From: Linum tenue
Taxonomy: Eukaryota; Streptophyta; Magnoliopsida; Malpighiales; Linaceae
DNA length: 64,000 bases
Direction of reading: 5' to 3'
NCBI GenBank assembly: GCA_946122785.1
Contig: CAMGYJ010000011.1
Span: 18,352,001 to 18,416,000, forward strand
Below the pieces are notes generated by a model, which ran no database searches, was not told the origin of the DNA, and saw only the letters and a list, made by a program, of their open reading frames with translations. This document shows positions 3,501 through 47,811 of this stretch, in pieces; position 1 is the stretch's first letter, and each line of letters starts with the position of its first letter. A program made the position numbers and the translations under genes.

Positions 3501-3798
3501 GCCCAATTCTGGAAGCCAGTAACTAATGTGAGCCGTGGGCCATAGTCGACAATGGATTGGTGAAACGAAGCCCAATTCAGTCCGGGCCTGATGGAAACTG
3601 CAGAAGCATTCAACATAGGGGTGGAAGTTTGGTTTGTGGTTTGGTTAGAGAAGCCCAATTCTGGAAGCCAGTAACTAATGTGAGCCGTGGGCCATAGTCG
3701 ACAATGGATTGGTGAAACGAAGCCCAATTCAGTCCGGGCCTGATGGAAACTGCAGAAGCATTCAACATAGGGGTGGAAGTTTGGTTTGTGGTTTGGTT
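3495..3798. repeat. 152-bp perfect or near-perfect tandem duplication
   Basis: Positions 3495-3646 are repeated at 3647-3798 with a period of 152 bp. Both copies run from AGAAGCCCAATTCTGG through TAGGGGTGGAAGTTTGG and appear identical by eye. Each carries the TGGGCY-type motifs of the gene's 5' flank plus the first bases of the adjoining hAT-like element. The duplication is therefore younger than that insertion and extends into upstream promoter DNA of the U11/U12-59K gene. Confidence 0.9.
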
Positions 3799-4494
3799 TA
3801 ACCACAAACTGCACTTAACCACACGTAGTTTGGTTAACTACTAGCCACATTTTGTGGTTAGTGGTTTAATTGTGGTTGGCAAAATTTTGAATTTTGTGGT
3901 TAGTGGTTAACCGCTAATCACTGTGGTCAAACCATAAAAACCGCGCAAACCACAGTTTTTCATTTAAGTTTTAGTTTTATACGTATTAGTATGTAATATT
4001 TAATCTTATCATTTTTAAAAAAATATTAATAAGTATGGTAATACAATTAAGAGAACTTGTTTAGTAGGTAGAACTTTAACAAGTTATTTGTGATATTATT
4101 GAATTAGTTATAGAAGATTCTACTGATTATTGAATTATTGACGTCTTATTCATTAAGAATGATGTTAAATTGTTGTTAAAGGTGTATTATCCTTTAATAG
4201 TTACTTCTATGATTCTCATTTTTTTATTGTTTATGTCATCTTTGTATCTCTCTAAAAAGAATTCGATTAATAACAAACCTATAAAAAAAATATAGATAGA
4301 TTTATGAGTTTGGTAAATTATTTTTTGCTGTTAACCACAAATAACTCCACCGAACCACAGTGGTTAGTGGTTAAGATATTTAGTTTAACAATGGTGTTGT
4401 TTGTGGTTAGGATATTTAGAGATTTGTGATGGTGGTTAACCGCTAAATGTGGCGCGGTTAACCACAATTGTATCGACGTCCACCCATAATTGAA
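3763..4494. mobile_element. hAT-like nonautonomous element rich in GTGGTTAACCAC
   Basis: The ends are inverted copies: TTCAACATAGGGGTGGA on the left and, read on the minus strand, TTCAATTAGGGGTGGAC on the right. The interior has no ORF of note. Both subterminal parts are packed with GTGGTTAACC / GGTTAACCAC units that could pair over long stretches. TAGGGG-type ends are typical of plant hAT MITEs. The target-site duplication is obscured by the adjacent 152-bp duplication. A second partial copy lies at 6727-7068. Confidence 0.55.
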
Positions 4495-6295: not shown

Positions 6296-6303
6296 GACAA
6301 AAT

Positions 6304-6690
6304 TAGGGTTGGCTATTTGGTCCGGGCTATTTGGTTTTACCCAAAATCGGATCGTATAACCCGGACCGGGACCGACCTGGAACCGGATAGCAAACAATCC
6401 AATCACATCTTCAGGCTTAGATTTTAGGTAAAAAACCGTTTGGGACTAGATGGAAAACCTGATAAGAGAGCCCAACACCCAAAACTTAACCAACTCCTCA
6501 CCCTTTGAGGCTTCAGGCCACTCAAATCCCCACAACCTCAATCCAAAATCAAGACCGAATTGGGACCGGACCGGATCAAGACCGGACTGTAACCAATCCA
6601 ATCTTTGGTTCTTATATTATCGAAAAGACCGAACTGAGACCAGATCAATTTGGGCCAATTTAACCGGACCAGACCGTATAACCACCCCTA
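6304..6690. mobile_element. hAT-type MITE with 8-bp target duplication
   Basis: The element begins TAGGGTTGGC and ends ACCACCCCTA, imperfect inverted termini of hAT type. It is flanked by GACAAAAT (6296-6303) and GACAAATT (6691-6698), an 8-bp TSD with one mismatch. The interior is built of CCGGACC / GACCGG / GGACCG motifs on both strands, as in many plant hAT MITEs. The plus-strand ORF at 6450-6755 only reads through these repeats. Confidence 0.7.
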
Positions 6691-6726
6691 GACAAATTCT
6701 TCCGGCCAATGGGCCGGGTCCTGTGC

Positions 6727-7068
6727 TAGTAAGAATGATGTTGAATTATTGTTAAAGGTGTATTGTCCTTTAATAGTTCTATGATTCTCATTTTTTTTTA
6801 TCGTTTATGTCATCTTTGTATCTCTCTAAAAAAAATTCGATTTATAGCAAACTTATAAGAAAAAATTTAGATAGATTTATGAGTTCGGTAAATTATTTTT
6901 TACGGTTAACCACAAATAACCCCACCGAACCGCAGCGGTTAGTGGTTAACCACGAACCACAATGGTGTTTTTTATGGTTAGGATGTTTAGAGATTTGTGA
7001 TGGTGGTTAACCGCTAAATGTGGTGCGGTTAACCACAACTGCACCGACGTCCACCCCTAATTGAACCC
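6727..7068. repeat. Partial second copy of the GTGGTTAACC hAT-like element
   Basis: This stretch parallels about 4159-4494: it opens with AAGAATGATGTTGAATTATTG and closes with GACGTCCACCCCTAATTGAA. Only the right half of the family is present. The shared right end, including TAATTGAA, indicates that these bases belong to the element and not to a target duplication. Confidence 0.7.
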
Positions 7069-17228: not shown

Positions 17229-17237
17229 TAACTAATA

Positions 17238-17315
17238 GGGTATGCCTACTATGACATTCATGTCACGGTGACATGCAATTTTCGGTCGACCTATTCCTGA
17301 AGGCGGTCGACCGAA
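17238..17315 (+). repeat. Left TIR of the 12-kb MULE
   Basis: Starts GGGTATGCCTACTATGACAT, then CATGTCACGGTGACATG (a near-perfect palindrome), then TTTTCGGTCGACC. GGTCGACC occurs 46 bp and 67 bp from the tip, the same offsets as in the right TIR. Confidence 0.92.
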
Positions 17316-17640
17316 TTGACTAATTTGGGCAGCACGAGAAAGCATTGCAGTCGACCTCAACGACCACCTGGTCGACCGCACTTAGTTTAAGTTGTTATTT
17401 TTGGTCGACCAGAATAAAACCTCGGTCGGCCATTTCGTTGGCGTCAGAAACAACATGGTCGACCACCTAAGGTATATAGGTCGACCACTTGATGGCAGTC
17501 ATTAACAAAATGGTCGAACGGAGAAGGAAAGAGGTCGACCATATAGAAGATAAGTGTTCTATCAAAGTGTCCAATCATTTGACGTAAAATGAAGATCAAG
17601 TGTTGGTTTCGCGGTCGACCTAATCCGGTACGAGGTCGAC
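17284..17640. repeat. GGTCGACC motif cluster next to the left TIR
   Basis: Nine exact GGTCGACC palindromes by hand count, plus degenerate forms such as GGTCGGCC, GGTCGAAC and AGTCAACC. Spacing is irregular, roughly 20-60 bp. There is no ORF. Confidence 0.9.
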
Positions 17641-17937
17641 CGAATACAAGAAAGTCAACCTATGCCTCGTGTCTTTTTTGCTTATGTATGTCGATTTGTG
17701 TGGTTCTTTTGATCGTATAAATTATGTTTCAAACCATCATAAATAGTCATAAATAATGATAACAAGGACTCATCAATTCATAGCATAACAACTAAACAAA
17801 CTAACAAGAAATACAATAAAACAGAAATCATAATTGTTCACACATAAAAATAAAACTAAAAAAACAACAGAATAACAATCAACAATCGTTTGACCACTTA
17901 ACAATAAAAACACACAATCTAAAATCTCCGCTCCTAC

Positions 17938-19174
17938 TCATCTCCCCCCCTCTCCCTCATCCACATTTTCTTCATTGGTGGTGCTAGCATGATGGTGGTC
18001 GGATGTGGTGGGATGCATGTATCTTCCGCTGAAAGATCGCCACTCATCTCGCATCTCATTCACGATCACATGCATTGTGCTCATCTGGGCGGTCATTTTC
18101 CCCATGTAGTCGTACATGCCAGTCATCTGGGTGGACATCTGGCCCATATACTCGTACATGCCATCCATGCGCTCCCACACACGCTCTAAGGTGATCGGTG
18201 GAGTTGAACTCTGTGCCTCCGCCATTGGCTCGTCTCCTTCATCACCATCATCATCCTCATCATCATCATCATCACCACCACCATGAGCATTGTTTATTCT
18301 GACATACTCACCATTACGCAGCTCAAAGCCCATCTTTTTCAGAGATGAAACAGTATAGAAATCCTGCCTTGAGATTCTTAACCCCACCTCTTCACTTAAG
18401 TTCACATTAAAAATGCTCAAATAGCACAGTGAGGATCATCCCATAGGGAAGATTCCTGTTTGAACTCTCTGCAGCAGTAAGCATGTGGTTAAAGATCAAG
18501 TATGGCAAGTTCACCATCTCGTTTAATAGTAGGTTGGTGAGGAGCTCCATGTCGAAGTAGGTGACTGTCTCCCGATGTCCACCCTTTGGCAGAATGTTGT
18601 AGGAAAGCATGTGGTGAAGAACTCTGGCTTGAATTGTCAGGTGGTTACTCGTTGGCCTATTGCGACCCTGAGCATCTTCCTCTTCATCAAGACCACATAC
18701 CGTCTGGATTTGCTTGGCTCTCGTGAAATGCGTTTCATTCCAAGCACCGTAAGAATGGATTCTCTTCCCCTCGTTTGGAGCCTCTAGTACTTGCGCCAAC
18801 ACATTCTTGCTGATGCGCATCGCCACCCCATTCACATAGGATTTGAATGCGTGAATGGATCCATTTGCATTGCGCTCGTAGACGATGTTGTTGTAGAAGT
18901 ACTGTACCAGTTTTGGGTAGTATGGTACATTGAGAGATATCACCTTCAGCCACTCCTGCTCGATGAAGGGTCCCAGAAACCCGTAATTCTCGAAATGAGA
19001 ATACGCATCCGTCGTCAATGGCCTTCCCGGAGCCACCCTGCGGTTGTGCATTCTCTTCTCTTCATAGTTCTCACTTTGCTCCTTGGTCTGGAACAGATTG
19101 GGATTGAACTCTTCCCATTCCGAACTTGAGGCAGCATCTTTTTGTGCCTTTCTTTTCTTTTTGCCGCCAAACAT
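17938..19174 (-). pseudogene. PF20167-like 'putative plant transposon protein', frameshifted
   Basis: The start is MFGGKKKRKAQKD at 19174, directly after a CGCAG acceptor-like site that suggests a 5' UTR intron. A basic N-terminus is followed by WEEFNPNLFQTKEQSENYEE, FLGPFIEQEWLKVISLNVPY, VRISKN-like FKSYVNGVAMRISKNVLAQV and LLTNLLLNEMVNLPYLIFNH, the layout of the 'putative plant transposon protein' domain (from memory PF20167). At about 18410 a T5 run shifts the frame: one frame ends at 18407 and the other continues NVNLSEEVGLRISRQDFYTV. That second part holds an Asp-rich acidic tract and MYEYMGQMSTQMTGMYDYMG-type heptad repeats, probably a coiled coil, ending at 17938. Biochemical function is unknown; inside a MULE, an accessory or DNA-binding role is inference. 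Confidence 0.72.
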
Positions 19175-19509
19175 CCTGCGATCAAATAAGCAAGAATACA
19201 CGTTAGTCACATTTTTGAAATGAACAATACGTGGTCGACCACTCCATAAAGCGGTCGACCTCAGTTAATTTAAAACGAGAATGGGTCGACCTCAGAAGAA
19301 TCATAGGTCGACCTCAGTTAATTTAAAACGAGAATTGGTCGACCTTAGAAGAAGCATATGTCGACCTCAGTTAATTTAAAACGAGAATGGGTCGACATAA
19401 ACCCGTAACAATTCAAGTACAAAATTGCTTTCATAGGTCGACCTCAGAATAAGCATAGGTCGACCTCGGAAAATTTAAATCGATTGAAAACTAGATGTGA
19501 CTTTCAGCA

Positions 19510-19798
19510 GGAGTGCAGTTCAGGACATTAGACCACCTTGGAATGCACTCGAAGACACAAACGTCTGCTGCCTTCACCGAGTTCTCCTTTGCAACCCTAT
19601 GTCGGTCACCGACAAGCAAACAACAACAATATAACAAAGAAGATCCGGGACATGCGGGGCGATGGTCGACCTCTTCTATTGTTGTTGTTTGCTTGTCGGT
19701 GGCCGGCATAGGGTTTCAAAGGAGAACTCGGTGAAGGCAGCAGACGTTTGTGTCTTCGAGTGCATTACAAGGTGGCCTAATGTCCTGCACTGCACTCC
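19510..19798. repeat. Long inverted repeat: 122-bp arms, 45-bp loop
   Basis: The arm 19510-19631 and the reverse complement of 19677-19798 differ at only about eight positions. Shared blocks include CACTCGAAGACACAAACGTC and TGCTGCCTTCACCGAGTTCT. The loop holds one GGTCGACC. A transcript would fold into an extended hairpin. Short ORFs on both strands here are mirror images of each other and are not considered genes. Confidence 0.92.
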
Positions 19799-19859
19799 CC
19801 ATGAACATCTGGCTTTCAATCGATTTAAATGGCCCGAGGTCTACCTCAATAAGTTTAGC

Positions 19860-20703
19860 ACAAATAACTCGAATTTTTGCCTTCATCGGTCGACCTCAGA
19901 AGCATCATAGGTCAACCTCGGCAAATTTTAAACGAGTCTGAAATGGCCCAAATGCTTTCAATGTTGAATGCAAAACAGATCCGGTCGACCTCATAAATAG
20001 AAGAGGTCGACCAGAGTTAGTTTCGCACAAATAATTCATAAGAGAATGGCACAACTCGAACTTTTGCCTTCATAGGTCGACCTCAGAAGCATCATAGGTC
20101 GACCTCGGCTAAATTGAAACGAGTCCGAAATGGCCCAAATGCTTTTGCTATTGAGTGCAAAACAGATCCGGTCGACCTCATAAATAGAAGAGGTCGACCA
20201 GTGTTAGTTTCGCACAAATAATTCATAAGAGAATGGCACAACTCGAATTTTTGCCTTCATAGGTCGACCTCAGAAGCATCATAGGTCGACCTCGGCTAAA
20301 TTGAAACGAGTCTGAAATGGCCCAAATGCTTTCAATGTTGAATGCAAAACAGATCCGGTCGACCTCATAAATAGAAGAGGTCGACCAGAGTTAGTTTTGC
20401 ACAAATAATTCATAAGAGAATGACACAACTCGACCTTTTGCCTTCATAGGTCGACCTCAGAAGCATCATAGGTCGACCTCGGCTAAATTGAAACGAGTCC
20501 GAAATGGCCCAAATGCTTTTGCTATTGAGTGCAAAACAGATCCGGTCGACCTCATAAATAGAAGAGGTCGACCAGTGTTAGTTTCGCACAAATAATTCAT
20601 AAGAGAATGACACAACTCGAACTTTTGCCTTCATAGGTCGACCTCAGAAGCATCATAGGTCGACCTCGGCTAAATTGAAACGAGTCCGAAATGGCCCAAA
20701 TAC
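19860..20703. repeat. 187-bp tandem repeat, about 4.5 copies
   Basis: Anchors (the C of CATAGGTCGACCTCAGAAGC, or CATCGG in the first) occur at 19884, 20071, 20258, 20445 and 20632, an exact period of 187 bp. Each full unit contains four GGTCGACC motifs and the words AGTTTCGCACAAATAATTC and CGAAATGGCCCAAATGCTTT. Confidence 0.93.
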
Positions 20704-21318
20704 TAGTAGCAAAACATCACAGGTCGACCTCAATATCATCACAAGTTGACCTCAGTCTGTACAACAGGAATAAATCGATTGAAAGCCAGATGCGGTCGAC
20801 CACGAAAATGAAAAGGTCGACCGCATCTGACGAACAGAAGGGTAAATCCCTCTTTTGAAGCCATAGATCTAAATAAAAACCCAAATACTCATAGCAAAAC
20901 GTCACAGGTCGACCTCAATATCATCACAAGTCGACCTCAGTCTATACAACAAAAGAAAAAATTGATTGAAAGCCAGATGCGGTCGACCACGAATATGAAA
21001 AGGTTGACTGCATCTGGCAAACAGAAGGATAAATTCCTCTTTTCAAGCTATATAAAACAGAAATAAAATCGATTGAAAGCCAGTTGCGGTCGACCACGAT
21101 GATGAACAGGTCGACCGCATCTGACGAACAGAAGGGTAAATCCCTCTTTTCAAGCTATAGATCTAAATAATAAATCCATAAAATCGTAGCAAAACTTCAC
21201 AGGTCGACCTCAATATCATCATAGGTCGACCTCAGTCCATAAAACAAAAATAAAATTGATCGAAAGCCAGTTGCGGTCGACCACGATGATGAACAGGTCG
21301 ACCGCATCTGACGAACAG
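20704..21318. repeat. Second tandem family (about 185 bp) with cruciform-forming arms
   Basis: CACAGGTCGACCTCAATATC recurs at 20718, 20903 and 21198. Within each unit CAGATGCGGTCGACC and GGTCGACCGCATCTG form perfect or near-perfect 15-bp arms around a 13-bp loop (for example about 20790-20830). The unit near 21061-21180 is a partial copy, explaining the 295-bp step. Confidence 0.85.
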
Positions 21319-21758
21319 AAGGGAAAATCCCTCTTTTCAATCTTTAGATTTTTCGAAAACAATCTAATCTACCAAAGAAGAAGACAAAATCGAATCAAAT
21401 GAAAAAGAGGACTGAAAGCTATACCTTGTTCTTCTTCTAAGTGATGAGGATGAAATGGAATGGAGGTTCCTTTGAGTTTTTGGAAAATGGAGTTTTTGGA
21501 AATTGGAGAAGAAGATGAAGAAGGGAAGGGAGAGGAAGAATGAGTGGATGTGGTGGGATAGGGTTCTGATTGTGATGTAGAATGAGTGGGGGAGGGTTTC
21601 TTAAATAGAGGATTGGGGGAGGTTTGGGTGGATGTTGCTATTGTTTATTTCAACCAACAATCAATTAACTCATAAATTATTAAGATAATTCGAAGAAAAT
21701 ACAATGCAATCACAGTTATTAAAAAATAAATAAACTCCTAAAAAACAATAGAAGAAAT

Positions 21759-24700
21759 TTAAGATCCTTTTTTGGGACTTTGTTTCGGGCACTTAGGGCG
21801 AAAATGACCATATTTCCCACATTTCGAACACTTTCTTAAACTTTTGCCCGATGCAGTTCGTGCTGACTTGAATGTCCCCTTGGTCTTCCCAATCTTTGGA
21901 TCTTTCACACTTCGAAGGGGTGCTGGAGGGTTTGCCGGTGTGGTGTTGTCCGTTCTCTCCCTCGCGAACTCAATTGCCCATTGAGTAAGGTCGTCCAACG
22001 TCTTAGAGACATGATTAAAAGCAGATTCATTACCACACGCGATGTCACATAAACGCTTACACTTTAGAGCCAATCCTCCATGTCTTATCAGTCGACCAAC
22101 TTTCTCTCCCACATCACCTCCAACTCCAGGATGACGATTTAGTGTCTTCGCATTTTGGGTCCATCGAAGCTTGAACCACGACGAGGGTAGTGCGGTGTAT
22201 CCCTTATTTTTTTATTACTGTAAGCATGTGTCTGCATGGAAACCCCTTAGATTCAAATAATGCACACTCACATTTTAGATCTTGATTGGACGTATTAAAT
22301 GTTAACCGCCTTATCCGATCTGGGTTCATGTAGTTCTTCAGTATGAATGTCTTTGTCCCATCTGATTCATTTCTTTTCTCCGCTAATACATAAGAAGCTT
22401 CATTCTCTAGTTCAGACTTGAAGATAGCAAATGTACTATGAGTGTAGATACTTTCAGCTTGCATTTCCCAAGTGCGAAGGGCATGCTTGCAGACCAACCT
22501 CGTGTGCCTAGAAGTATAATCATCCTGCACCTCCGTGAAACGCATCCCCTCCAGTGCTTCATCAATGCCCTGAACAAAACGTTGCAAGCTGTATTGAGTT
22601 CCCACATACCCATTTATCCAATGGTTACATGACTCACAGTAATTTGTCAGCGTACAAATCCTGCAACCAGTGCAGTCAAAATCGCGCTTTAAAGCGTAAA
22701 ATCGTACGATTTTAAGTTTATAGGGAAGGAAAATGTTTCAAATCACTAATAAAATCGTTTTTCACTCAAAATCGGTCAAAAGCGTTGTAAAATCGTTGAA
22801 ATCGGATAAAATCGTGTTTTCAGACCGTTTTTATCCGATTCCAAGCCAAGGAGAAATCTGTCTCCACCAAACCAAAACGGCGTCGTTTTGAGCACTTCGG
22901 GCAAAAAAAAAGGGGAGAGGCGTGGATATCGGACTCGGGCCGAGGCTGCAATCCCTTGTCCGCCTTCTCCTCCTCCTCGACAAACACTCCACCAATCCCT
23001 AATCCGCCGTTTCCACTCTCCAACACTCCACTACGGCAGCACCCACCTCCTCGACGAACGTCCTTCTCGGCAAAGCACGCTCGCCGCCGCCGCGAGGCAG
23101 TCCTTCTCTGCAATCGCTACAAGTCCGCAACCATCGCTGCCACCTTCCAGCGAAGCTCAAGCTCGTCGCACTCGATAGTTCCCGTTGCTTGTCGCCGTTG
23201 CACTCTTCGTCGCCCGTCCCACTCTTCATCGCGCATCGCACTCCCCGGGGCCACAACCTAGCATGTTAGTTTTCGTCGCCCGTCACATTCCCTTGGCTGC
23301 TGACTTTTCTTCTTAGCTCACCCGCTCTCCGATGGCGGGCTGATATCTGTTCTCAGCTGACATAAATTTTATTTATGTTTCATTCCTCCCCATTAAATCA
23401 ACCAGTCGTTAGCTCATAGTATCCTCACATGAGTTTTGAATATGTTTTCGGAAAGTATATCACATAGGTTTGAGTTCATGGGTGTTTGGAGGGGATGTGA
23501 TCCCATGAGTTTCAGTAACGTTAAGGTTAAAGCTTCCTTCTATCTTTTATAACATTTGTGTGCTTTGATTTCGAGAAACTTGGATTATTAAAGTCCTATG
23601 TTATTATGTAAGCTTAAACCAGTTTGTGGGAATTTGGATTCTTAACTCGTTTGTGAGTTACGATTTATGTTTATGAAGTTATTTTGAAGATATTATGAGC
23701 TTGTATTAATTTAGATGTGAATTGCAAGTATTTATTCTTTTATATAAACTCTGTGCACTCGTATTTTACATAGTTTATTTCGTACTTAATAGATTCTGAA
23801 CTATTATATAGGATGCATAAAAAACTTACGCTTTTACGCTTTGATTCACCGCTTTTCGATTTTACCCCTTTTCCGCTTTTAGGTAGAATCGCGCTTTTGA
23901 CTGCATTGCCCGCAACCACTTATTTGCAGACAAACCATGCTGACTAATCAAATGCTCCCAACGCCTCTCAAACTCCTCAATCGATATACGTGCTTTCGCC
24001 AAGTAAGTGAATGCGCTAACGAACTCCTTATTATGAACGGCCGTTGTCGCATTTGTCTCAATATGCCAAATACACAGACGGTGAGGCACTCCGACCAGAA
24101 CAGTAGCAATGGCACCACGCATAGACTTGTCTCCGTCTGTGATCACTAAAGTTGGCATCTTAGAGTTCATACACTCCAGAAAAGTATTCAACAACCAAAC
24201 ATAGTTGGGGATTGTCTCGTTATCCAACTGGGCAAAACCATATATGATGTTACGGTGGTGGTGATTTACACCAACCATCATAACAAATGGTCGATTGTAC
24301 TTGTTGCGCTTGTAGCATGCATCGAACGCCAAGACATCCCAAAAAAAATGGTAATCTACTCTAGATGTGGAGTCCGACCAGAAGAGATTGCCTAATTCAC
24401 CTTCATCGTTGGTTGTGTACTTGAAGAAGCTGCCCGCATTAGAGGTATGTTTACTTTGCAAGTAACCCAATGTTCGGTTAACATCTCCTATTAGATCGTC
24501 GTCAACTGTTCGGGATTGCTGAACAGCATTGTCCAAATCCTTTGGAGTGTACCCCAGATTCTCATATCCTCCAACTTTATTCTTCATGAACTGAACAATG
24601 TTGCGTTGTTTTATTCCTGACTGTCGTATCCCTATCGCCAGAGCCTTGTCTCCTTCACTCACATTTCGATGAGACCGAAGGAATTGAGTTTCTTCTTCAT

Positions 24701-25217
24701 TGCAGCAACGATGTGAGTGCTTCCTCTCAAACTTAGAAACAACCCACATTTTCTTATTCCGATCAAAGCGTACAGTATACGATGCCTTGCAAGAATGTCT
24801 TGTCATCTTACGATGTTGTCGAGTCCGACCTTCTTTATCTATATGCATCTTCTCTCTAGTCCCCTCTCTCGAACATACCATTGTCCTCCCAATTGCTACT
24901 CCTCGACGACTCCTCCGAAGATCTCTACGCCGAACGCTAAATCCTTTCGCTTTAGCATAGGAATCGTAAAATTTCTCTGCATCTTCTAATGTTTGGAACT
25001 CCATGGAAGGAATTTGTTGTTCATATTCAGTAGCTTCTTCATCATCCATAAATTCTTCTTCAACACCCTCGGTTTCATTATCATCCCCAACCACTTCATC
25101 ATCCGTATTATCTGTATCATCTGAATTATCCATATCTCCTTCTCGAGCATCCTTAGGTTCCTCATCGAAGTTAACCTCATCATCATCTCTATCATCTCTT
25201 TCATCTCTGTTATCCAT
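21759..25217 (-). pseudogene. FAR1-domain MURA transposase, interrupted
   Basis: The start is MDNRDERDDRDD at 25217 after a TTGCAG acceptor-like site. An acidic N-terminus precedes a FAR1 DNA-binding domain (about residues 70-165: FYDSYAKAKGFSVRRRD, then RHSCKAS and HSHRC). The MULE transposase core follows: VLAFDACYKRN and VITDGDKSM supply the first two acidic residues, and RLCIWHI follows. At 22670-23909 an inserted element splits the gene. Past it come CNHWINGYVGTQYSLQRF and a SWIM zinc finger (CECALFESKGFPCRH). A shift in an A7 run near 22215-22221 precedes the C-terminal CSKCGKYGHFRPKC zinc knuckle, ending at 21759. The segment expected just after the insertion appears shortened and changes frame. 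In intact elements this enzyme binds TIRs and excises the DNA. Confidence 0.9.
22670..23909. mobile_element. 1.24-kb TIR element inserted in the MULE transposase
   Basis: Left end GTGCAGTCAAAATCGCGC; right end, on the minus strand, GCAATGCAGTCAAAAGCGCG. Flanking CTGCAACCA (22661-22669) and CCGCAACCA (23910-23918) look like a 9-bp TSD with one change (8 bp is possible), so it is Mutator- or hAT-like. The left subterminal region repeats AAAATCGT / AATCGGTC words; the middle (about 22880-23250) is GC-rich and of unknown origin. Transposase reading resumes on both sides, which confirms insertion. Confidence 0.8.
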
Positions 25218-25298
25218 CCTGCAACGATCGGAATACGAATTTAATGTCAAAAACATACACAATTAGCTCTCGTCAGGTCGATCTGAATGAACTGTACG

Positions 25299-26062
25299 GT
25301 CGACCTTATTACTAAATAACAAAGATGAGGTCGACCCAAATTTACTGACAGGTCGACCTAATCATATAATTACACAAATACGGTCGACCGGATGGTGGGG
25401 GTGGTCGACCTAATTAGGGAAAAATTTAACCACATACAACCATTAACAAGCACATACGAGACATACCTTAGCCAAGAGGTCAACCACTTATTGTTACGGT
25501 CTACCGGAATAAAAATAAACCGCCACCAACACCCGATCACAATAAGAGCGATGAGATTACAACTTCACTCCAACAAATTGCATAAATCGAAGTACGATTA
25601 AAGCCTTAAGACTCCCATCTATTTATAGATCATGTAGACGAATTCCTTATCCAATTGGTGAAAGATATATAAAATCATAATTCGACAAGGACAAGTACAC
25701 AAAATCCTAATTGTACAAGGGCATGAATCATTACGGTCGACCGCTTTGCACAAATGGTCGACCGTCTTGGGTAAATGTGAAACAGGTCGACCTCTTTACA
25801 CAAATGGTCGACCGTTGTTTATAAATGTGAAACAGGTCGACCTCTTTACTGAAATGGCCGACCATTGTTTATAAATGTGAAACAGGTCGACCTCTTGACA
25901 CGAATGGTTGACCGTATTTTATTAAGGCCAAACAGACGAGATTCCATCCTTATTCTACATGGTTTTTGACTTTGCTACGGTATCATAGGTCGACCTTAAG
26001 CGTCACGAGGTCGACCTATGCTCTGCCTTTGGGTATGCCCGCTTTGAGTATGTGGTCGACCA
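25299..26062. repeat. GGTCGACC cluster between transposase and Ulp1-like gene
   Basis: About 14 exact motifs by hand count, including a short array near 25736-25920 with repeated AAATGTGAAACAGGTCGACC units alternating with TGGTCGACCGT. Degenerate copies (GGCCGACC, GGTTGACC, GGTCTACC) show decay. This is noncoding and upstream of the transposase start. Confidence 0.88.
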
Positions 26063-26217
26063 CTTGTTCTAGATGATTGAAATCGTAAATTCAGTCACAT
26101 CCATAATTGTATAACAAATCTAATAAACGATAAACATTCAAAATCCAAAATGAAACGATATCGCAAATACAAATTCAATGTATTGTCCAAATAATGCAAC
26201 ATTGTAACTTAACGACT

Positions 26218-28344
26218 TCATTTCTTTGCTTTTTTGTTTGAACTTTGTCTATCTTTGCCTCGTTCCATGCATTCATCTACTACATGCTTGAAAAGATTTT
26301 CTCGTGCACGGTTTTCAAAATGTGTAGCCAGATACCATAGAATCTCCTTTCGATCCGGTAATTTGTGTTCTTCTCCTATCTGCATTATGCCATGTAAGAC
26401 TTTTTTTTTTCGTCGAATGCCATGTAAGACTTCGTTACAACTAAAAAAAGTGTAAATTAAACAAGTTATTTGTTTGACGATATACTCACCACTCTATCCA
26501 GATCCTTGAATCCATAGCGCATCCACTACATGACGTGCACACCACACTCAGTACTATTCCTTTGCCGTTGAACTCGTAGCTCATCAAAATTGAAATCTCC
26601 AAAATTTGGTACTACTACATTGCTCATGCGATCCGGTTTCAAAATATCATCCAAATTGGAAACTACACACAAATAACGAATATTTTAAGCTTCTAGCATA
26701 ATACGTAACGCTTAGTAGTCAGAAAATTATAGGAAACACTTACCAATTTCTTGCATAGTGCTGATTTACGCCTACGATTCGCCTCACTAGTTGAAGGTAG
26801 ACTGTCAAGCAAAAATGCAGTTTTTTGCTGGACATTGACGAGATACAGAAACCAATGACGTGCTTCATCGTCAAGAACTGGCATAAATATCTAGCAACGG
26901 AACACTCACTATATGTTATAAACAGCGAATACAAACAAATGCACTTTCGAAATTTAATGATATAGGGATATTGACTAGACTAACCTTCTGACATGCACTA
27001 ACATTCGGCATAAAGACCACGCCATCATTCATCAACTTGTTACGAATTTGTCTGGTCTTCATGTTAGCGTGTACCATTTTCTGCACCATGTTTTAATTGA
27101 GATGAATTGACATGGTACAATATAAATAACTAGGTTATGACAAATAATTTGACATTACGACTCTTACCGAAAACATATTTGGCAGATACCACACATTTGG
27201 CTCTTTCACATCATGTTTTTCAGACATTGTTAGTGCCCTTGCACACAAATCCACTATCTACCATCCAACAATCAAACACAAAATCATCGTAAATCGTAAC
27301 ATAAATAGTGCACAATTCATACGAAAGTTGTAGTAGTATAGTACTTACTGATGAGCAAACCCAGCTATTCTCGCTAATGACCGAACTCAAATAATATCGT
27401 TGCACGTTTTCAGAAAAAAAGTCCACAACGGTCAAACTGCAAAAATCAAAATAACAGAAATGTCAATTGTGATTTGCAACGTACAGGTCGACCTGTTCAC
27501 AGTCACGGTCGACCTTATTGGACAAACGGTCGACCTCACGTACTAAAAAATGTCTTACTTGTCCCAATTCGTGTCCCCGTCATTCTCTTTAGTAACAACA
27601 TAATACAAGTCTTCAACTGGATTTTGAAGATTTTTGGTGAATCCTTCTAGACCCTCCACTTTCATGACCTACAAATCATAGTTAAAATTAAAGTAACATA
27701 TGAACACAAACACACATTATAGATGAATATGTAACGTAAACTTACCCCGTGCTTTTAGAAAGGACTCTTAGATTCATCTTCATCGCTATCATCACTAAAT
27801 AATCTTTTTCTTACAAATTGATCCTTCTGTGGAGTGGTGTAGGAGTCACTTTCATATCATGGTCTCTTGTACTTAGGAGAGGAACCCTTGCTGCCATTCG
27901 TTGTTTCACTCTGTCAAACATATAAACAAAACAAATTAGCACTAATGATAGTAATACTAATATCTTCAATCACATATGAATATACTTGGATACCTTTAAA
28001 ATGTGCTCTTTCAATAAATCGTCTATGCTCTGGTAGCAATTTTCAGAGTCATCATGGTCTTCCTCCTCTTTACCAAAGTCAAATTTCTTTCCTTTACCAT
28101 TTCTTCCGCCATTCTCCATTCGTTATGCGCTTATATCTTTGATAGCACCTTCTAGCCTCTCAAACCCGTCATGCATCATCCCAGTCATATCTGTCAGTCG
28201 AACTGACAATTGCTCCACTCTATCACGCATGGACTTCTGAAAGTCATTGACTTGTGTTTGACACACCACCAGCTTCTCTTGTGTGGCTTTCAACAATTTC
28301 ATGATTTCACCCAAATCTTGATGCAGTTTCTCATCATGCGTCAT
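26218..28344 (-). pseudogene. Ulp1-like (C48) cysteine protease gene of the MULE
   Basis: The multi-exon remnant starts with a coiled-coil segment (MTHDEKLHQDLGEIMKLLK, 28344-28123), then TAA, then MENGGRNGKGKKFDFG in the same frame. Toward the 3' end, segments at about 27240-27000 read DLCARALTMSEKHDVKEPNV and NDGVVFMPNVS. The catalytic part follows: HWFLYL (His) and LLDSLPS (Asp) at about 26750-26890, bounded by TAG and GTAAGT splice sites, and QRNSTECGVHV (Gln and catalytic Cys) at about 26530-26575. A TAG codon follows that Cys by four residues. The C-terminus is a lysine-rich tail ending near 26218. The family cleaves SUMO or related conjugates; in MULEs its role is unknown. Exon borders are approximate. 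Confidence 0.82.
27485..27533. repeat. Three GGTCGACC motifs in an intron-like gap of the Ulp1-like gene
   Basis: Three exact copies within about 50 bp, between coding segments of the protease gene. Confidence 0.85.
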
Positions 28345-28419
28345 CGTCTAAACAATTTAAAGAAAAATTCAAATCATAATTCAACTACAGATTTCTACAA
28401 TTGACCAAAAAACAAAGAC

Positions 28420-29343
28420 GTGGTCGACCTGACAAAGTATTAGGTCGACCTGGAAGACAAATAGTGACTACCACAACCATTAAGGTCGACCTCTGTTATT
28501 CCTAGGTCGACCTATCCAGCAGGAAAATAACAATTAACAACAAAAAGTAAGTTCAAAATTAAACCGAAAAAGGATAGGTCGACCAGATATCTGGCGCGGT
28601 CTACCTTTTCAAGCACAACATAGTCATACAAACAATGCCAAAGTCGATATTCAGGTTGAATAACCAAAAAAACAGAAACGGTCGACCTTGAAACCAATTA
28701 GGTCGACCAATTGGGTTGATCTTCGTTACCTCGCAAGTACAGAAGTCCAAGTGTTGTGGCCTAAATTCAAATACGAAGAATTGTCTCGTCAGGTCGACCT
28801 GGTTGACGTCACGGTCGACCGAATGGAATTCTGCACCCAACAATATATCAGATTAGCCGGTGGAAATCACGCATTAGAAAAGAAGACGGCGAGTGCTACA
28901 TTAGGTCGAACGCACCTTAGACCTGGTCGACCACTTCCAACACGTACAACAGCAACCGCGAACGATCTTCTTCACAAAGGCTCTAAATCGGAAAAAAACC
29001 CTAATTCAGACTTGGAGGCGTTGAAGGGGACTTATATTCGTATTTATAGAGATTGAGGACGTGAATGGATCGACCCAATTCATTTCCTTGTCCAATTGTG
29101 GAACCTTTCTGGTGTTGGAATCCATATCCAATACGGATACGGTGTGAAGGCGGTCGACCTCTTCATAATGCGGTCGACTTGTTAGGTGCACAAGGGTCGG
29201 CCTATGAAATATTTGGGTCGACCTTTCATTCTGTTAGACCACCAAAGCGGTCGACCATATTATGTAAGAGGTCGACCGCGTCTCGGAACCCCACATACAT
29301 GAATTAGTCCGTTCGGTCGACCGCATGTTGGATTAGGTCGACC
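28420..29343. repeat. GGTCGACC cluster next to the right TIR
   Basis: About 16 exact copies by hand count plus degenerate ones (GGTCTACC, GGTCGGCC, GGTCGACT). The last two are in the right TIR. This is upstream of the Ulp1-like gene on the minus strand, where its promoter would be expected. Confidence 0.88.
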
Positions 29344-29389
29344 GAAAAGTCCATGTCACGGTGACATGCATGTCACCGTAGCAAAATCC
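29312..29389 (-). repeat. Right TIR of the 12-kb MULE
   Basis: On the minus strand it starts GGATTTTGCTACGGTGACAT, then CATGTCACCGTGACATG and TTTTCGGTCGACC. It aligns to the left TIR gap-free over about 77 bp, with mismatches concentrated in the first 25 bp and at about +58 to +63. Confidence 0.92.
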
Positions 29390-29509
29390 TAACTAATAAA
29401 GATTTGCTTTGTACAGCTCTATGCTCATCAAGTGAAAGAAAGAAGAAGATACACCAAAAGTTACTGTGAGAAAGAAAGTGTTTCACAACTAAAAATTCAC
29501 TTATGAAGT

Positions 29510-29699
29510 TGTCCAAGAGGAAACGACCAGGACCTAGATGTAGATGTTACTTAGTTCATAGGTGATGTTGTAAAATGTATTTACTTTAAGTACTGAATAG
29601 GTAATTAGGATTCTTTATATATATGATGTAATGTAAAGGATATGGTAACTTTTCATTTTCCAATTAATAAAATCTGCCTGTAGGGTTCTCTAAACGACA
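29510..29699 (+). repeat. 5' LTR of Copia B
   Basis: TGTCCAAGAGG to TAAACGACA, with a TATA-like TTTATATATATG near 29614-29625. It differs from the 3' LTR at only about nine positions in 190, so the element is fairly young. Confidence 0.88.
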
Positions 29700-29998
29700 T
29701 GGTATCAGACGACGAAATTCACCTTTCTTGTTTTCTTTGACTTTCCGTCATTTTCTTTTCCTTTCTCGAGGACTTCAGGAGAAGGGAATATCTCGTTAGT
29801 TTCTCTTTCCTCTGCTTCTCGATCGTTCTTCGATCGATTCGTTCCAGTCTCCGCTCACTCTGATTCTTTGATTCGTTCATTTTTTTGCAACAATCACCGA
29901 TTCGTTCATTTCTCAGCGATGATCATGAGTCTTGATTCCGTTTGTTCAGCATCTTTTCCAGTCGATTCGTCAGCCATTTCAGATCCAGATCAAGATCG

Positions 29999-31189
29999 AT
30001 GGCGTCTTTCTCCGCCGTTAATGCAACGTTTGGTCCACCGCCTTCTGGAGCTGCGTCTGGTGGTGTCCCTCCGGTCACTATGATCCCTAGCAGTATTCCT
30101 CCGGTTAGCGCGATGTTTGGTGGTTCTGCGTCCATCGGTGCTACACTGTCGCTGGCGCATGCGTTCTTTGTGGCCAACATCGATCTCTCTGCTCAGCAAC
30201 TTGTTACAGTGCTGCTTTCTGGCTCCAACTATCACAGCTGGGCGCAATCAATGCGCATGGTATTACATGCAAGAAACAAGCTCCCGTTAATCGATTCCCG
30301 TTCACCAGTCCCGTCGCCAGATGATCCTCTCTGGAGTGCTTGGGATCAGGCCAATGTTCTCGTGCTAGGATGGATTCAACGGTCTGTTGCTCCTGAGATT
30401 GCACAGAGTATTCTGTGGTTCAATACAGTTGTAGAAGCCTGGGAGGATCTTCGCGAACGTTTCAGTGAAGGAAATGAGATTCGTATCTCGGATCTCTATG
30501 ATGAAATCGCGGCTCTCAAGCAAGGTTCGTTGTCTATTAGCTCTTACTTTACCAAATTTCGTGTGTTGTGGGAAGAGTTTTTGGTTCTGCGACCTCTCCC
30601 TGTTTGCTCCTGCAATCCTAAGTGCAAGTGTGATGCTTCATCGATTCCGCGAGAATATATGCGTAGGGATAAGGTTATTCGTATTCTAAAGGGGCTGAAT
30701 GAGAGCTTTGGTCACATTAAGTCACAACTGTTGATGATGGATCCACTGCCTTCCATCAATAAGGTTTTTTCTAGCCTAGCTCAGCATGAACGGCAGTCTG
30801 TTAATCCGTCGTTACTCCCTACTGCCCTAGCTGCTCACACTCATGGAGCTTCAAAGGGACATCATTCTGGCCAAGGAGGTTCTTCCAAGGGTCAGACTTC
30901 TAATGCTTCAGGACAAGGTGGGGGTAAGAAGCGACCTTATTGTACTCACTGTGAAGGTTATGGGCATACGGTGGATCGATGCTATAAACTTCATGGGTAT
31001 CCACCAGTATACAAGCATCGCGGTGTTAATGCTGCTGTGACAGAGGTTGATCAACCTTATTCTACTGATGGAGTTGCTGGTAATGAACCTGCGGTGCTTA
31101 CTAGAGCCCAATATCACTCCTTACTCCGCAAGTGCAACATCTTTCTGCTACTCCTGCAGTCAATCTGGTCACGTCTACAAGACAGATGA
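29999..31189 (+). pseudogene. Copia B gag
   Basis: The start MASFSAVNATFG lies at 29999. The capsid region includes LLSGSNYHSWAQSMRMVLHA, WDQANVLVLGWIQ, AWEDLRERFSEGN and CSCNPKCKCD, typical of plant Copia gag with the N-terminal retrotransposon domain. After a Gly/Ser/Gln-rich linker comes a zinc knuckle CTHCEGYGHTVDRC. The frame drifts after LLRK near 31125, where the pol frame takes over; a one-base indel is the simplest cause. It is otherwise open over about 380 codons, so it is the best preserved gag in the window. Confidence 0.88.
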
Positions 31190-34100
31190 CACCTACACCA
31201 GCTGCTCCTGCTTCTATTCCATCAGCTGCTGCTCCTGCTACTCTTCCATCAGCTGACGATTCTGTCTATATCCCTCAACCACTTGGGGACAATGATATTA
31301 CCACAGAAGATACAGGTACTATCCTCTCATCTCCGAACTTAGCTTTGAATTCTATGGATTATATAGTGGATAGTGGTGCAACTGATCATGTTGTGTCTGT
31401 GTTACACTTATTTCAGACCTATAGAAAAATAAACAACATGTCAGTTTCATTACCAAATGGTGTTAAAGTTAGAGTTACCCACATAGGAACTATTCAAATC
31501 ACTCCTATGCTTACTTTACATGATGTATTATACATTCCAGCGTTTTCTTTCAATCTCATTTCAGTGTCTAAACTAGTAAAATCTTCAAATTGCATCTTAA
31601 AATTTACTGCCGATTCTTGCTTAATTCAGGATCTTTCGTCCCACGAAACGATTGGTACAGCTAAACAAGAATCTGGCCTCTATCATCTCAACATAGCATC
31701 ATTTGTATCTCAATCATCCTCCTGTAATGTTTGTTTCAATGCCACTTATGTTCCTTTTGATATATGTCATTACAGACTTGGTCACACTTCCATTCCACTC
31801 TCTCATATTTTAGATGATACAATCAGACCAGTTGTTTCTCATAATAAAACACCTTGTACTATCTGTCCTTTAGCTAAACAGAAGCGTCTTCCTTTTCCTT
31901 CGAGTACCTCTCATGCTTCTTTTCCTTTTGAGTTACTTCATATCGATATATGGGGACCATATCAGGTTCCCACTGTTGATGGTTTTAGATACTTTCTCAC
32001 TTGTGTTGATGATTTCTCAAGACACACTTGGATTTATCTAATGAAAACAAAAGGTGAAGCTAGGCAAATTCTTTTAGATCTTCTGGCTTTCGTTAATACT
32101 AAATTGTCTTCAAAAATCAAAATAATCCGAACTGATAATGGCCAAGAATTTAATGTTCCATCTTTCTAGAATACGTTTGGTATTATACATCAAACAACTT
32201 GCGTTGCTTCCTCTCAACAAAATGATCGTGTTGAGAGGAAACACCAACATATATTGGCTGTTGCTCGTGCTCTCATGTTTCAAGCTTCATTACCAATCTC
32301 TTTTTGGGGTTTTGCTATTTTACATTCTGTATTCTTGATTAACAGAATGCCATCTCCACTTTTACAAAATCTTTCTCCTTATGAATTGCTTTTCAAAACT
32401 AAACCTGCTTATAGTGAATTCAAGGTTTTTGGTTGCCTTGTTTTTGCTTCAACATTGCAACATAACATACCAAAATTTGCTCCTAGAGCCGACCCTTGTG
32501 TTTTCTTAGGTTTGCTCAACACTGTTAAAGGGTATAGAATTTATAATCTCGTTTCTCATAACATCTTTTATTCACGAGATACTGTATTCCATGAACATGT
32601 CTTTCCATTTGCTAATTCTAAGTCCACACCTGAGTTTGATTTTTGTTTTCCTTGTATTCAAGTTCAGGAAACAGTAGCTCATCATAGTTTAACTGATTCA
32701 TATTCTCGGCTTCAACCTCTTTCTTCTTTGCCTCAATCTGAGGAGCTTTTAGATTCCTCATTTCCTCCACCCGAGGAACCTCTAGATCTGGTTGATATCA
32801 TTCAAGCAGTTGAACCACCTCCTTATGCGAGGCCTTATCGTGTTAAGGTACGTCCTAAGAAGTTAAATGATTACATATGTGCTGTATAGTGTAATGATGT
32901 TACTTTTCCTTTATCTATGGTCATGACTTTTGATAATCTGAGTCCAGAATACAAGAAGTACATTCTGGCCAATTCTGCTATTCTAGAACCTCGATCATAC
33001 AAAGAAGCCATTAAGGATCCTAGATGGTCAGAAGCTTGTAATTCTGAGTTAGCTTCTTTGGACAAAACTAATACATGGACTATTGTGGAATTGCCTATTG
33101 GTAAGATTGCTATAGGAAATATGTGGGTTTTCAAAGTTAAGTTTCTTGTTAATGGTGACATAGAAAGGTTTAAATCTCGACTAGTAGCAAAGGGGTACAC
33201 TCAAACCCCTGGCCTAGACTATTTAGAAACCTTTGCACCAGTTGTCAAACACACAACTGTTCGACTTGTTTTGTCATTAGCTGCTATTAACAACTGACAC
33301 TTGCATCAGCTTGATGTTAATACAACATTTTTACATGGGGACCTTGATGAAGAGGTTTACATGAAAATCCCTCCAGGTCTGGTAGTGCCTCCTGGCTTTA
33401 AAAATCCAGTATGTCGTCTTAACAGGTCAATTGATGGTTTAAAACAAGCAAGTAGCCAATGGAATATTAAACTTTCAAAGTTTTTAATTTCAGCTGGTTA
33501 CAAACAGTCTAAAGCAGATTACTCTATGTTTGTTCGTAGTCATAATCAGTCTTTTACCATTGCACTTGTGCATGTTGATGATATAATCTTGGCTGGAAAT
33601 GATCTTAATGCCATTACTGATCTCAAACAGCAGCTACATCAGACATTTACAATCAAGGATCTTGGAGAATTGAAATTTTTTCTTGGTCTTGAGATTGTTA
33701 GGTCTGATAAGGGCATTCTGTTATATCAAAGGAAATTTGCATTAGATTTGTTAACAGATTATGGTTTTCTAAGTGCAGAACCTTGTGACTCTCCTTCTGT
33801 TCCAGGTACCAAACTTTATGCCACTTCTGGTAATCTTTTTTCTGACCCTTCTGTTTACAAACGGCTGGTAGAGAGACTTTTATATCTTTGTAATACACAT
33901 CCCGATCTTGCTTATTCAGTCCATCAGTTAAGTCAGTTTACACACAGCCCTACTGACCTGCATATGCAAGCTGCCGAACGTGTTCTACGTTATATCAAAG
34001 GCACTACAGGTCAGGGACTTTTCTTTTCTGTTGCATGTGAACTAAAATTGAAAGCATTTTGTGATAGTGACTGGGCTGGCTGCCCAGACACGCGCAGATC

Positions 34101-34617
34101 CACTACAGGGTTATGTGTATTATTGGAAAATTCCTTGATTAGTTGGCGTTCCAAGAAACATAAAACTGTTTCTCGCTCCTCAGCTGAAGCTGAATATAGA
34201 GCAATGGCAAGCTTAACTTGTGAATTGATGTGGCTTCGATATGTATTGAATGATTCACAGATTTCCTTATCTTCTCCTACTCCCATTTATTGTGATAGTA
34301 TGTCGGCTATTAAGCTTGCTGATAACCCAGTTAATCATGAAAGCATAGAGCATATAGAGATTGACTATCATGTCATTAGGGATAGAATTCTAGATGGTGT
34401 GATTAAAGTTCTTCATGTTTCTTCTGCGAATCAACTCACTGACATGTTTACAAAGTCGCTTCCAGTTCATATTTTTCAACAGTTGCAGGCCAAGCTGGGT
34501 CGTCTTGATATATACGCATCAGCTTGCAGGGGGAGTTGTCCAAGGAGGAAACGACGAGGACCTAGATGTAGATGTTACTTAGTTCATAGGCGATGTTGTA
34601 AAATGTATTTACTTTAA
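31132..34617 (+). pseudogene. Copia B pol (protease, integrase, RT, RNase H) with three in-frame stops
   Basis: One frame carries protease (YIVDSGATDHV, near 31360), pre-integrase zinc motif (HYRLGHTS, CTICPLAKQ), integrase (HIDIWGPY; IIRTDNGQEF), RT ([44 protein letters not shown]) and RNase H (AFCDSDWAGCPDTRRSTTG; SRSSAEAEYRAM). Stops fall at about 32167 (within the integrase core), 32887 and 33295-33297. The RT box reads HVDD where YVDD is usual, and the frame continues into the 3' LTR because the normal terminator is gone. No frameshift occurs after 31132. Confidence 0.92.
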
Positions 34618-34726
34618 GTACTGAATAGGTAATTAGGATTCTTTATATATATGATGTAATGTAAAGGATATGATAACTTTTCATTTTCCAATTAATACAA
34701 TCTGTCTGTAGGCTTCTCTAAGCGAC
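34537..34726 (+). repeat. 3' LTR of Copia B
   Basis: TGTCCAAGGAGG to TAAGCGACA. The pol reading frame has no stop before it and runs into this LTR to about 34617. Confidence 0.88.
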
Positions 34727-34731
34727 ATATG

Positions 34732-35178
34732 ATCAGGTTGTCCAATAGATCTAATTACAATGACTTAAATGATCTTATAAGTTATAAGACCAGTAGTTCA
34801 GCACTGGCAGATGATCTGGGTTGGGTCTTAAGTTGTTTGAGAGTTTTCGTCTATGTTAAATTTTGTCGAAACTTGTACATATATAAGTAACGTAATTCAA
34901 GTTTTTTCGAAAGGAACATTCGATAAAACTTAAACGGTACTAGAGAAGTGACCTGGCCACTGAATATTCTTGGTTTGCCAAATATAATAAGATATATGAA
35001 TGAAGGTTGGTAATTGTCCACTTACTGTTTTGCAACGAATAATCTTTTAGCCCATCAGGATTACGGACCTCTCTTCTTCAACCAGCAGCCTCCTCCCAAT
35101 TTTAAGGGAACCACGAAAAATAATTTCTCCTGGTTATTCCTCTTTTGTTTTTGTCTTCATGTCTTTCTATTAAATTAA
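34732..35178. other. Spacer, no gene seen
   Basis: AT-rich sequence with no supportable ORF between Copia B and the TTACGTAA element. Confidence 0.4.
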
Positions 35179-36178
35179 GGGATTTCCTACGATAACTTTA
35201 AATAAGATAACTTGAACTTTTTTACCTGTTATAGCAGGTTTCACAGGTCGCATTACGTAAAATACAATAGACATTATGTAATGGTTACATATGGTAATCT
35301 TACGTAACAGTTGTAAAAGATCATTACGGAAGTCTTACGTAATAGGACGCGTCTTTACGTAATGAGCATTAACCTCACATTACGTAAAATGCTAAGTCAT
35401 TACAGAAGCATTATGTAACGCTACTGATTTAACTGTTACGTAAGAAATAACTCTCGTTCCGTAACCTTTACGTAATGGTAGGTCTTTTTACGTAATAAGT
35501 ATTAACCTCACGTTACGTAAAGTGCTAAGTCATTACGGAAGCCTTACGTGACGCTTCCGATTTAACTGTTACGTACGTAAGAAATAACGATCGTTCCGTA
35601 ACTTTTACGTAATGAATGTGTATTTTACTTAACAGTTGGAAAATGTCATTACGGAAGCCTTACGTAATAGAAGGTCTCTTTATGTAATGAGTATTAACGT
35701 CGTGTTACGTAAAGTGCTAAGTCATTACGGAAGGTTTACGTAATGCTTCCAATTTCACTGTTACATAAGAAATAACTATCGTTTCGTAACCCTTACGTAA
35801 TGGATTTGTATTTTACCTAACAGTTGTAATAGATCATTACGAAAGCCTTACGAAAGGGAATGTCCTTTTACGTAATGAGTATTAATCTCATGTTACGTAA
35901 AGTGCTAAGTTATTACGGAAGCCTTACGTAATGCTTCTAATTCAATAAGAATTAAATAAGAAAAAACAATTACATGCGAAAAAGGAAAGAAAATGTTAAG
36001 AAAGGTAAGTGGCGTTGGTGGTTACCAGCAACCCCTGTTGTCATTAATTTTTTTTTATATTTTATATTTTTATTTTTTTTTAATTAATGGTTTAAAATAA
36101 GTTTGGTCGATTTTAACTGTTTAGATCTATACAAGTTACCTAACTTGAAATTATAACCAAGTTACTATAGGAGGTCCC
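35179..36178. mobile_element. Candidate nonautonomous TIR element carrying a TTACGTAA array
   Basis: From 35250 to 35945 the palindrome TTACGTAA and the half-word CATTACGGAAG recur every 10-50 bp. GTGCTAAGT-type anchors at 35391, 35524, 35716 and 35904 show units of about 133, 192 and 188 bp. The proposed ends GGGATTTCCTACGATAACTT and, on the minus strand, GGGACCTCCTATAGTAACTT are inverted relatives starting with G-runs as in MULE TIRs. No TSD was found and there is no ORF, so the exact borders are tentative. Confidence 0.5.
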
Positions 36179-47086: not shown

Positions 47087-47267
47087 ATTAGGCTATTTAT
47101 GCTCGCCGCTCTATGGTCGCGTTTGTTTGAACTCTTCTTTCTTTTTGTTTGCTCATGTCTCTTTTTTTTTTGGTGTGCGCGTGAACCTTTCAGAATATTT
47201 ATTTATATCTCTAAGTATATTACCTTCTATTGCCCTTGGTATGTTCTTGTGTTTCCGAACGATTTTG

Positions 47268-47745: not shown

Positions 47746-47811
47746 ATTGCATTTTTGTACAAGAACGTTGTTGCCTTTTCATTGTCATCTGCTCAGCGAG
47801 AAAGTGATACA

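What the first reader, a model, noticed from the sequence alone, without database searches (positions are those of the whole stretch)
17284..29343. About 78 copies of the palindrome GGTCGACC restricted to noncoding DNA of one MULE
A hand count gives 78 exact GGTCGACC in 12.15 kb, where chance gives well below one, plus many one-base variants. They occupy four intergenic blocks and an intron-like gap and avoid the coding exons. I noticed only one copy elsewhere in the window (41897). The centre is CpG (TCGA), so the sites are methylation-sensitive targets. VANDAL MULEs of Arabidopsis carry dispersed short motifs bound by VANC anti-silencing proteins; this array could be an independent equivalent read by the transposase or the PF20167-like protein.
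Basis: partly seen in the sequence, partly recalled or inferred. Interest (0 to 1): 0.86.

Follow-up and report, generated by a model that had tools for sequence, protein, structure and literature searches.

The report
Paired CpG-palindrome code in wild-flax MULEs
A jumping-gene family in a wild flax relative carries dozens of copies of one 8-letter palindrome, nearly always in pairs two DNA turns apart and outside its coding parts, while a sister family uses a different palindrome, which suggests a private DNA address code read by each family's own proteins.

Summary
In detail: 78 exact GGTCGACC lie at 17284-29343, none in the transposase or PF20167 coding segments, and one more lies at 41897; dinucleotide shuffles average 0.09. 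They sit in a complete MULE (17238-29389, perfect 9-bp TSD, TIRs) with a FAR1/MULE/SWIM transposase, a PF20167 gene and a Ulp1-like gene.

74 of 78 sites are in pairs 20-23 bp apart; 47 pairs fall into 27 spacer groups. The host genome (692 Mb, probably Linum tenue) holds 8,392 exact N13 pairs against 0 for the reversed pattern. All 30 transposase loci fetched carry 34-48 motifs, 0 in the coding span. Among them motif bases differ at 0.5%, spacers at 8.3%. Short relatives keep pairs near their ends. A sister family (transposase about 42% identical) has no GGTCGACC at 3 of 3 loci but 22-29 copies of another CpG-centred palindrome, TTACGTAA, phased at 11/20/25 bp.

So the motif changes with the family, as Arabidopsis VANDAL/VANC targets do. 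I read it as a self-recognition array bound by an element protein, most likely the FAR1-domain transposase, for end recognition plus regulation or anti-silencing. Binding and any methylation effect are untested.

The parts
17238..29389 (.). Whole MULE, 12,152 bp; its genes are on the minus strand
   Evidence: Identical 9-bp flanks TAACTAATA at 17229-17237 and 29390-29398; TIRs
17238..17325 (+). Left TIR with GTCACGGTGAC at 17262 and a motif pair at 17284/17305
   Evidence: I2, 90 nt, 81% complementary, arms from 17236; 0 of 16 motif columns differ between the two ends, 34 of 104 others do
29302..29389 (-). Right TIR with GTCACGGTGAC at 29355 and a motif pair at 29315/29336
17284..17641 (.). 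Motif block 1 (left TIR and 3' side of the PF20167 gene), 9 exact sites
19233..21303 (.). Motif block 2 (between the start of the PF20167 gene and the end of the transposase gene), 36 exact sites; includes the 187-bp x4.5 array at 19866-20701
25298..26061 (.). Motif block 3 (just upstream of the transposase gene), 14 exact sites
27486..27535 (.). Motif block 4: three sites at 21-bp steps in an intron-like gap of the Ulp1-like gene
28422..29343 (.). Motif block 5 (upstream of the Ulp1-like gene to the right TIR), 16 exact sites
21759..25217 (-). Transposase gene (FAR1, MULE, SWIM, weak zinc knuckle); interrupted and frame-broken in this copy
   Evidence: Pfam FAR1 4.2e-17, MULE 3e-23, SWIM 2e-7; zf-CCHC 0.0013, below its cut-off; homologue P0010 matches in three pieces
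17938..19174 (-). PF20167 (Transposase_32) gene; frame-broken in this copy
   Evidence: Pfam 7.5e-22; P0001 matches in two frames; helix 329-385 of P0001 in a very low-confidence model
26221..28344 (-). Third gene with Ulp1/C48 protease pieces; stop codons inside in this copy
   Evidence: Peptidase_C48 4e-5 at 26732-26890; frames, places; exon limits not determined
35179..36178 (.). Short relative of the sister family with 17 exact TTACGTAA at 35253-35926
   Evidence: termini read by eye against the C5 element; flanking 9-mers do not match

Best explanation
The pairs are binding sites for a protein that the element itself makes. The symmetric 8-bp site is read by a dimer, and two sites 21 bp (two helical turns) apart lie on one DNA face and hold a tetramer or two cooperating dimers. 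One pair in each TIR helps to mark the ends for transposition; the arrays around every gene form a self-recognition platform that keeps or restores transcription of the element, most simply by occupying CpG-centred sites and countering silencing, as VANC does for VANDAL. Best candidate reader: the FAR1-domain transposase; second: the PF20167 protein. Shown by sequence: the pairing, the noncoding restriction, conservation across copies, pairs in TIRs and in short relatives, and replacement by another palindrome in a sister family.
Against: No binding, expression or methylation data. In a control with frequent words, 35% of 398 words (of 795 eligible; 120 of 435 pairs) were as conserved as the motif, so the conservation claim rests on the contrast with spacers and flanks and on the locus tests (P 0.0019 for 11 loci, 0.019 for 5). 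The 30 copies are close relatives and not independent; spacers in arrays may be misaligned. The full sister element has its array at one end only, so end recognition does not generalise. The AFT2 match is rank 49, tied with unrelated rows (Foldseek E 0.042). The sister family is represented by three loci. All three genes of the window copy are broken.
Confidence: 0.5

Rival explanations
1. Transposition sites only: the pairs are transposase-binding sites that build the transpososome, and the internal arrays are extra or decoy sites from duplicated end-like DNA, with no role in gene control or anti-silencing.
For: A pair in each TIR; short relatives carry their sites near the ends only; the mosquito MULE Muta1 has subterminal tandem repeats inside its TIRs, kept in variable number in its non-autonomous copies (PMC5225508, passages).
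Against: Arrays flank every gene and sit in a gene gap, up to several kb from the ends, and are conserved in noncoding segments away from the ends; in the full sister element the array is at the transposase-promoter end, with one exact site near the other end.
Confidence: 0.27
2. Host reader: the palindromes copy binding sites of host transcription factors (TTACGTAA resembles NAC/bZIP sites and GGTC/GACC resembles W-box halves; both recalled, not tested), giving the elements host-driven promoters.
For: Arrays lie upstream of gene starts; the resemblance is recalled only.
Against: Strict spacing, 21 bp in one family and 11/20/25 in the other; no mixing in the 6 loci compared; a pair inside the TIRs; sites also on the 3' side and in a gene gap.
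Confidence: 0.15
3. By-product: a satellite-like expansion of one seed sequence with no function.
For: Tandem units of 187, 294 and 50 bp raise the count; 64 spacer pairs are alike against 1.6 in shuffles.
Against: 22 of 47 pairs have spacers below 70% identity to any other; motif columns change about 16 times less than spacers; the sister family shows the same contrast with another palindrome.
Confidence: 0.05

Closest known systems
VANDAL21/VANDAL6 MULEs and VANC proteins of Arabidopsis (PMC5735166, PMC10398659; passages seen)
   Same: MULEs with a short motif concentrated in noncoding regions (terminal, intergenic, intron), partly as tandem repeats; related families carry different motifs; extra genes beside the transposase.
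   Different: Here a FAR1-type transposase, the motif inside TIRs, a symmetric CpG-centred palindrome in two-turn pairs, PF20167 and Ulp1-like genes, no DUF1985/DUF287 match. The VANC motifs quoted (YAGTATTAY; AGTTGTCC/AGTTGTAC) hold no CpG. No binding or hypomethylation shown here.
Jittery group of MULEs (group 36 of PMC6446971; table passages seen)
   Same: FAR1 at the N-terminus, SWIM or zinc knuckle at the C-terminus, TIR length within the listed range.
   Different: Three genes instead of the one listed; motif arrays; 9-bp instead of the listed 8-bp TSD; placement in a tree not tested.
Muta1 of Aedes aegypti (PMC5225508; passages seen)
   Same: MULE ends with a terminal palindromic motif and subterminal repeats that non-autonomous copies keep in variable number.
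   Different: 12-bp repeats with 3-4 bp spacers within the TIRs; one gene; no dispersed arrays in the passages seen.
Maize En/Spm (CACTA) TNPA sites (recalled; one search found no paper on it)
   Same: An element protein binds repeated short sites near both ends and affects methylation and transcription (recalled).
   Different: Another superfamily; sites confined to the subterminal regions (recalled).

Membership tests
MULE superfamily | Target-site duplication, mostly 9 bp | tested here: met
   TAACTAATA on both sides
MULE superfamily | MULE transposase domain | tested here: met
Jittery group (group 36) | FAR1 N-terminal, SWIM or CCHC C-terminal, TIR 39-292 bp or none | tested here: met
   (zinc knuckle below cut-off) against the table
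Jittery group (group 36) | One ORF | tested here: not met
   Three genes
Jittery group (group 36) | Position in the MULE transposase tree | not tested
   No tree was built
VANDAL | VANC gene with DUF1985 and DUF287 | tested here: not met
   No such match at E up to 10 in P0001, P0003, P0006 or in the six window pieces of the third gene; other extra genes were not excluded
VANDAL | Transposase of the VANDAL group, for which no FAR1 is listed | tested here: not met
   FAR1 domain present; named relatives are mostly FAR1-RELATED SEQUENCE proteins; no tree built
VANC-type anti-silencing (works like) | Short motif in noncoding element DNA that differs between related families | tested here: met
VANC-type anti-silencing (works like) | An element protein binds the motif and removes DNA methylation | not testable with these tools
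   Needs DAP-seq or EMSA and bisulfite data

The most novel reading that the evidence does not exclude
FAR1-type MULEs evolved, independently of VANDAL/VANC, a methylation-sensitive self-recognition code: CpG-centred 8-bp palindromes in helically phased arrays read by the transposase's own FAR1 (WRKY-GCM1-like) domain, used both to mark ends and to keep the element unsilenced, each lineage with its own palindrome and spacing rule (GGTCGACC at 21 bp; TTACGTAA at 11/20/25 bp).
Probability: 0.35. Interest if true: 0.86.

Novelty: new variant of a known kind. Interest (0 to 1): 0.75.

Why it matters
The VANC system in the passages read is an Arabidopsis VANDAL system. A second case in another MULE group, with at least 62 scored transposase copies, dozens of sites per copy and a sister family with a different palindrome, would let one ask directly how a transposon protein and its target motif change together, whether a CpG in the site makes binding sense methylation, and which domain sets specificity. 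The two-turn pair gives a clear binding prediction.

Tried and rejected
Considered and rejected: (1) GGTTAACC (7 copies at 3905-7027) as decayed GGTCGACC: it lies in a separate repeat with GTGGTTAACCAC-like DNA. (2) An empty site through the neighbouring copia LTR: the joined flanks match the second LTR only from 29507 on, so none was found. (3) Structure of the PF20167 protein: 12 sequences, pLDDT 34, not usable; searches found relatives named only as Linum trigynum (9, 14). (4) Conservation by frequent control words did not set the motif apart (35% of 398 words as conserved). (5) PDB sequence search of the transposase: one weak irrelevant hit. (6) A paper search for GGTCGACC gave 584 papers; the 20 listed are unrelated by title. 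(7) Two other paper searches aimed at Ulp1-bearing MULEs and TNPA gave one paper each, not on this subject by title and abstract.

Not obtained: genome counts of single GGTCGACC, of spacing N15, and of the PF20167 protein, because the genome search stayed busy. N13 is therefore the only spacing counted genome-wide, and whether PF20167 genes accompany every copy is unknown; of the copies compared, the window and C2 copies have one.
Full report
What is there. The window holds 79 exact GGTCGACC, 78 of them at 17284-29343 and one at 41897. Shuffles that keep dinucleotides give a mean of 0.088 and a maximum of 2 in 1000. The 78 lie in one MULE, whose ends are set by a perfect 9-bp duplication, TAACTAATA, at 17229-17237 and 29390-29398 and by TIRs 81% alike. 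The element is 17238-29389.

Genes. On the minus strand are a transposase with FAR1, MULE and SWIM domains and a weak zinc knuckle, a PF20167 gene, and a third gene with a Ulp1/C48 piece (4e-5). The window copy is broken: the transposase homologue P0010 matches in three pieces with a gap of about 1.2 kb, the PF20167 homologue P0001 matches in two frames, and the third gene has stops. None of the 78 sites is in the five transposase and PF20167 segments tested; three sites lie between coding-like pieces of the third gene, whose exon limits I did not determine.

The unit is a pair. Of 98 sites (exact or one mismatch) 89 lie in pairs 20-23 bp apart; of the 78 exact ones, 74. Pairs with one exact site and up to two mismatches in all number 47: 27 at 21 bp, 18 at 22, 2 at 20. 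Their spacers fall into 27 groups at 70% identity; 22 groups have one member. Of the 27 representatives 21 are at 21 bp, 5 at 22 and 1 at 20. Local duplication (units of 187, 294 and 50 bp) therefore explains part of the count but not the pattern.

Host and copies. The window is G000:C11:18352001-18416000 of an assembly of 692 Mb. Its contig C9 has 69,330,625 bases, the length listed for the contig of P0012, named Linum tenue, so the host is probably L. tenue (inferred). The exact pair with N13 occurs 8,392 times, its reversed control 0. The listed places are the first ones only, all on C2, and form 9 clusters; all 9 carry the family's TIR core beside the motifs: one full copy, one fragment and seven short relatives. 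Five of the seven short ones have identical 9-bp flanks and are 446-1,088 bp long (L006, L009, L011, L012, L014); for L010 and L013 no second end was identified. In those five the sites sit within about 155 bp of the ends and the middle has none.

The transposase search scored 62 matches of 3,806 candidates, 94-97% identical, 49 of 62 without a stop; the family is large and recently expanded (inferred). For 30 of the 62 the DNA with 1.5 kb on each side was held: all 30 have 34-48 exact motifs, together 1,273 in 90 kb of flanks and 0 in 65 kb of coding span; the next palindrome has 41. All 30 lack TTACGTAA.

Conservation. Between the window copy and the C2 copy, in four noncoding segments that leave out block 2, 10 of 400 motif columns differ against 170 of 2,202 others. 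Over all 435 pairs of the 30 copies, in 700 bp on each side of the coding span, motif columns of pairs differ at 310 of 59,787, spacers at 4,286 of 51,761 and 8-bp outer flanks at 3,083 of 54,112. Per locus, with L016 as reference, motif sites are more conserved than other 8-bp windows (P 0.0019 for 11 loci on one side, 0.019 for 5 on the other). Against this, 35% of 398 frequent control words are as conserved as the motif; such words are chosen for being present in most copies, which favours conserved places, but the result tempers the claim. The coding span differs at 0.85% in the pairs of equal length. The copies are related and array spacers may be misaligned, so these counts are not independent tests.

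A sister family changes the motif. The search with P0011 gave 63 matches: three of the P0011 clade (97, 72 and 72% identical) and 60 at 41-42%. All three of the clade have arrays of another CpG-centred palindrome upstream of the transposase: TTACGTAA 29, 29 and 22, and GGTCGACC 0 in every stretch fetched. Three of the 60, taken because they were not in the list, carry GGTCGACC 44, 41 and 10 and no TTACGTAA. The sister arrays follow a repeating spacing such as 24-20-11-21-25-11-20-25-20-11, which sums to 188 bp, the tandem period found, against 187 bp in the first family. In 6 of 6 comparisons of four sister arrays the motif columns (up to one mismatch) differ less (1.6-9.4%) than the rest (5.3-27.8%). 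One of the four is in the window, in a short element at 35179-36178. The full sister element on C5 spans about 8571486-8582209, by its termini; its array is at the transposase-promoter end, with one exact site near the other end. Beside the C9 sister transposase lie a plant-mobile-domain-like piece (1.7e-4, below cut-off) and a C48 piece (2.4e-6), with no PF20167 match in the five pieces scanned; three C5 pieces gave none of these.

Known systems. VANC21 binds YAGTATTAY in noncoding parts of VANDAL21 and removes methylation; VANC6 has other motifs; the motifs sit in tandem repeats (PMC5735166 and PMC10398659, passages). The present case resembles it in layout and in family-specific motif change, but does not meet the VANDAL features tested. 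Mosquito Muta1 has repeats inside its TIRs that non-autonomous copies keep in variable number (PMC5225508). Ten paper searches listed nothing that by title or abstract describes this array; I saw listings and the passages named, in an open-licence library only.

Verdict. The reading as an independent VANC-like system is plausible and passed its main sequence test; binding and anti-silencing are untested.

Noticed in passing
35179-36178: Short MULE-like element with 17 exact TTACGTAA in a phased array, a relative of the sister family.
   Followed up: yes
19866-20701; L047:2180-2798; L048:2739-3209; L049:2489-2913: Arrays of both families repeat at 187-188 bp although their motifs differ; near the plant nucleosome repeat length (recalled). 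Unexplained.
   Followed up: partly
about 22650-23870: About 1.2 kb absent from the C2 copy interrupts the transposase gene of the window copy; origin not determined.
   Followed up: partly
19457-19846: Long inverted repeat (132-nt arms, 92%) with one motif in the loop, largely unmatched in the C2 copy; its RNA could form a hairpin.
   Followed up: no
17262 and 29355: A second palindrome-like block, GTCACGGTGAC, lies outside the motif pair in both TIRs and nowhere else in the window.
   Followed up: partly
about 3780-7060: Repeat with GGTTAACC in GTGGTTAACCAC-like DNA, perhaps hAT-like; two GGTTAACC pairs are also 22 bp apart.
   Followed up: partly
29507-34736: Copia retrotransposon just right of the MULE; LTR pieces 95% identical.
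   Followed up: partly
47266-47748: 84-bp tandem repeats with six TAGCGCTA palindromes, in a gypsy-like region.
   Followed up: no
41897: Single unpaired GGTCGACC outside the element.
   Followed up: no
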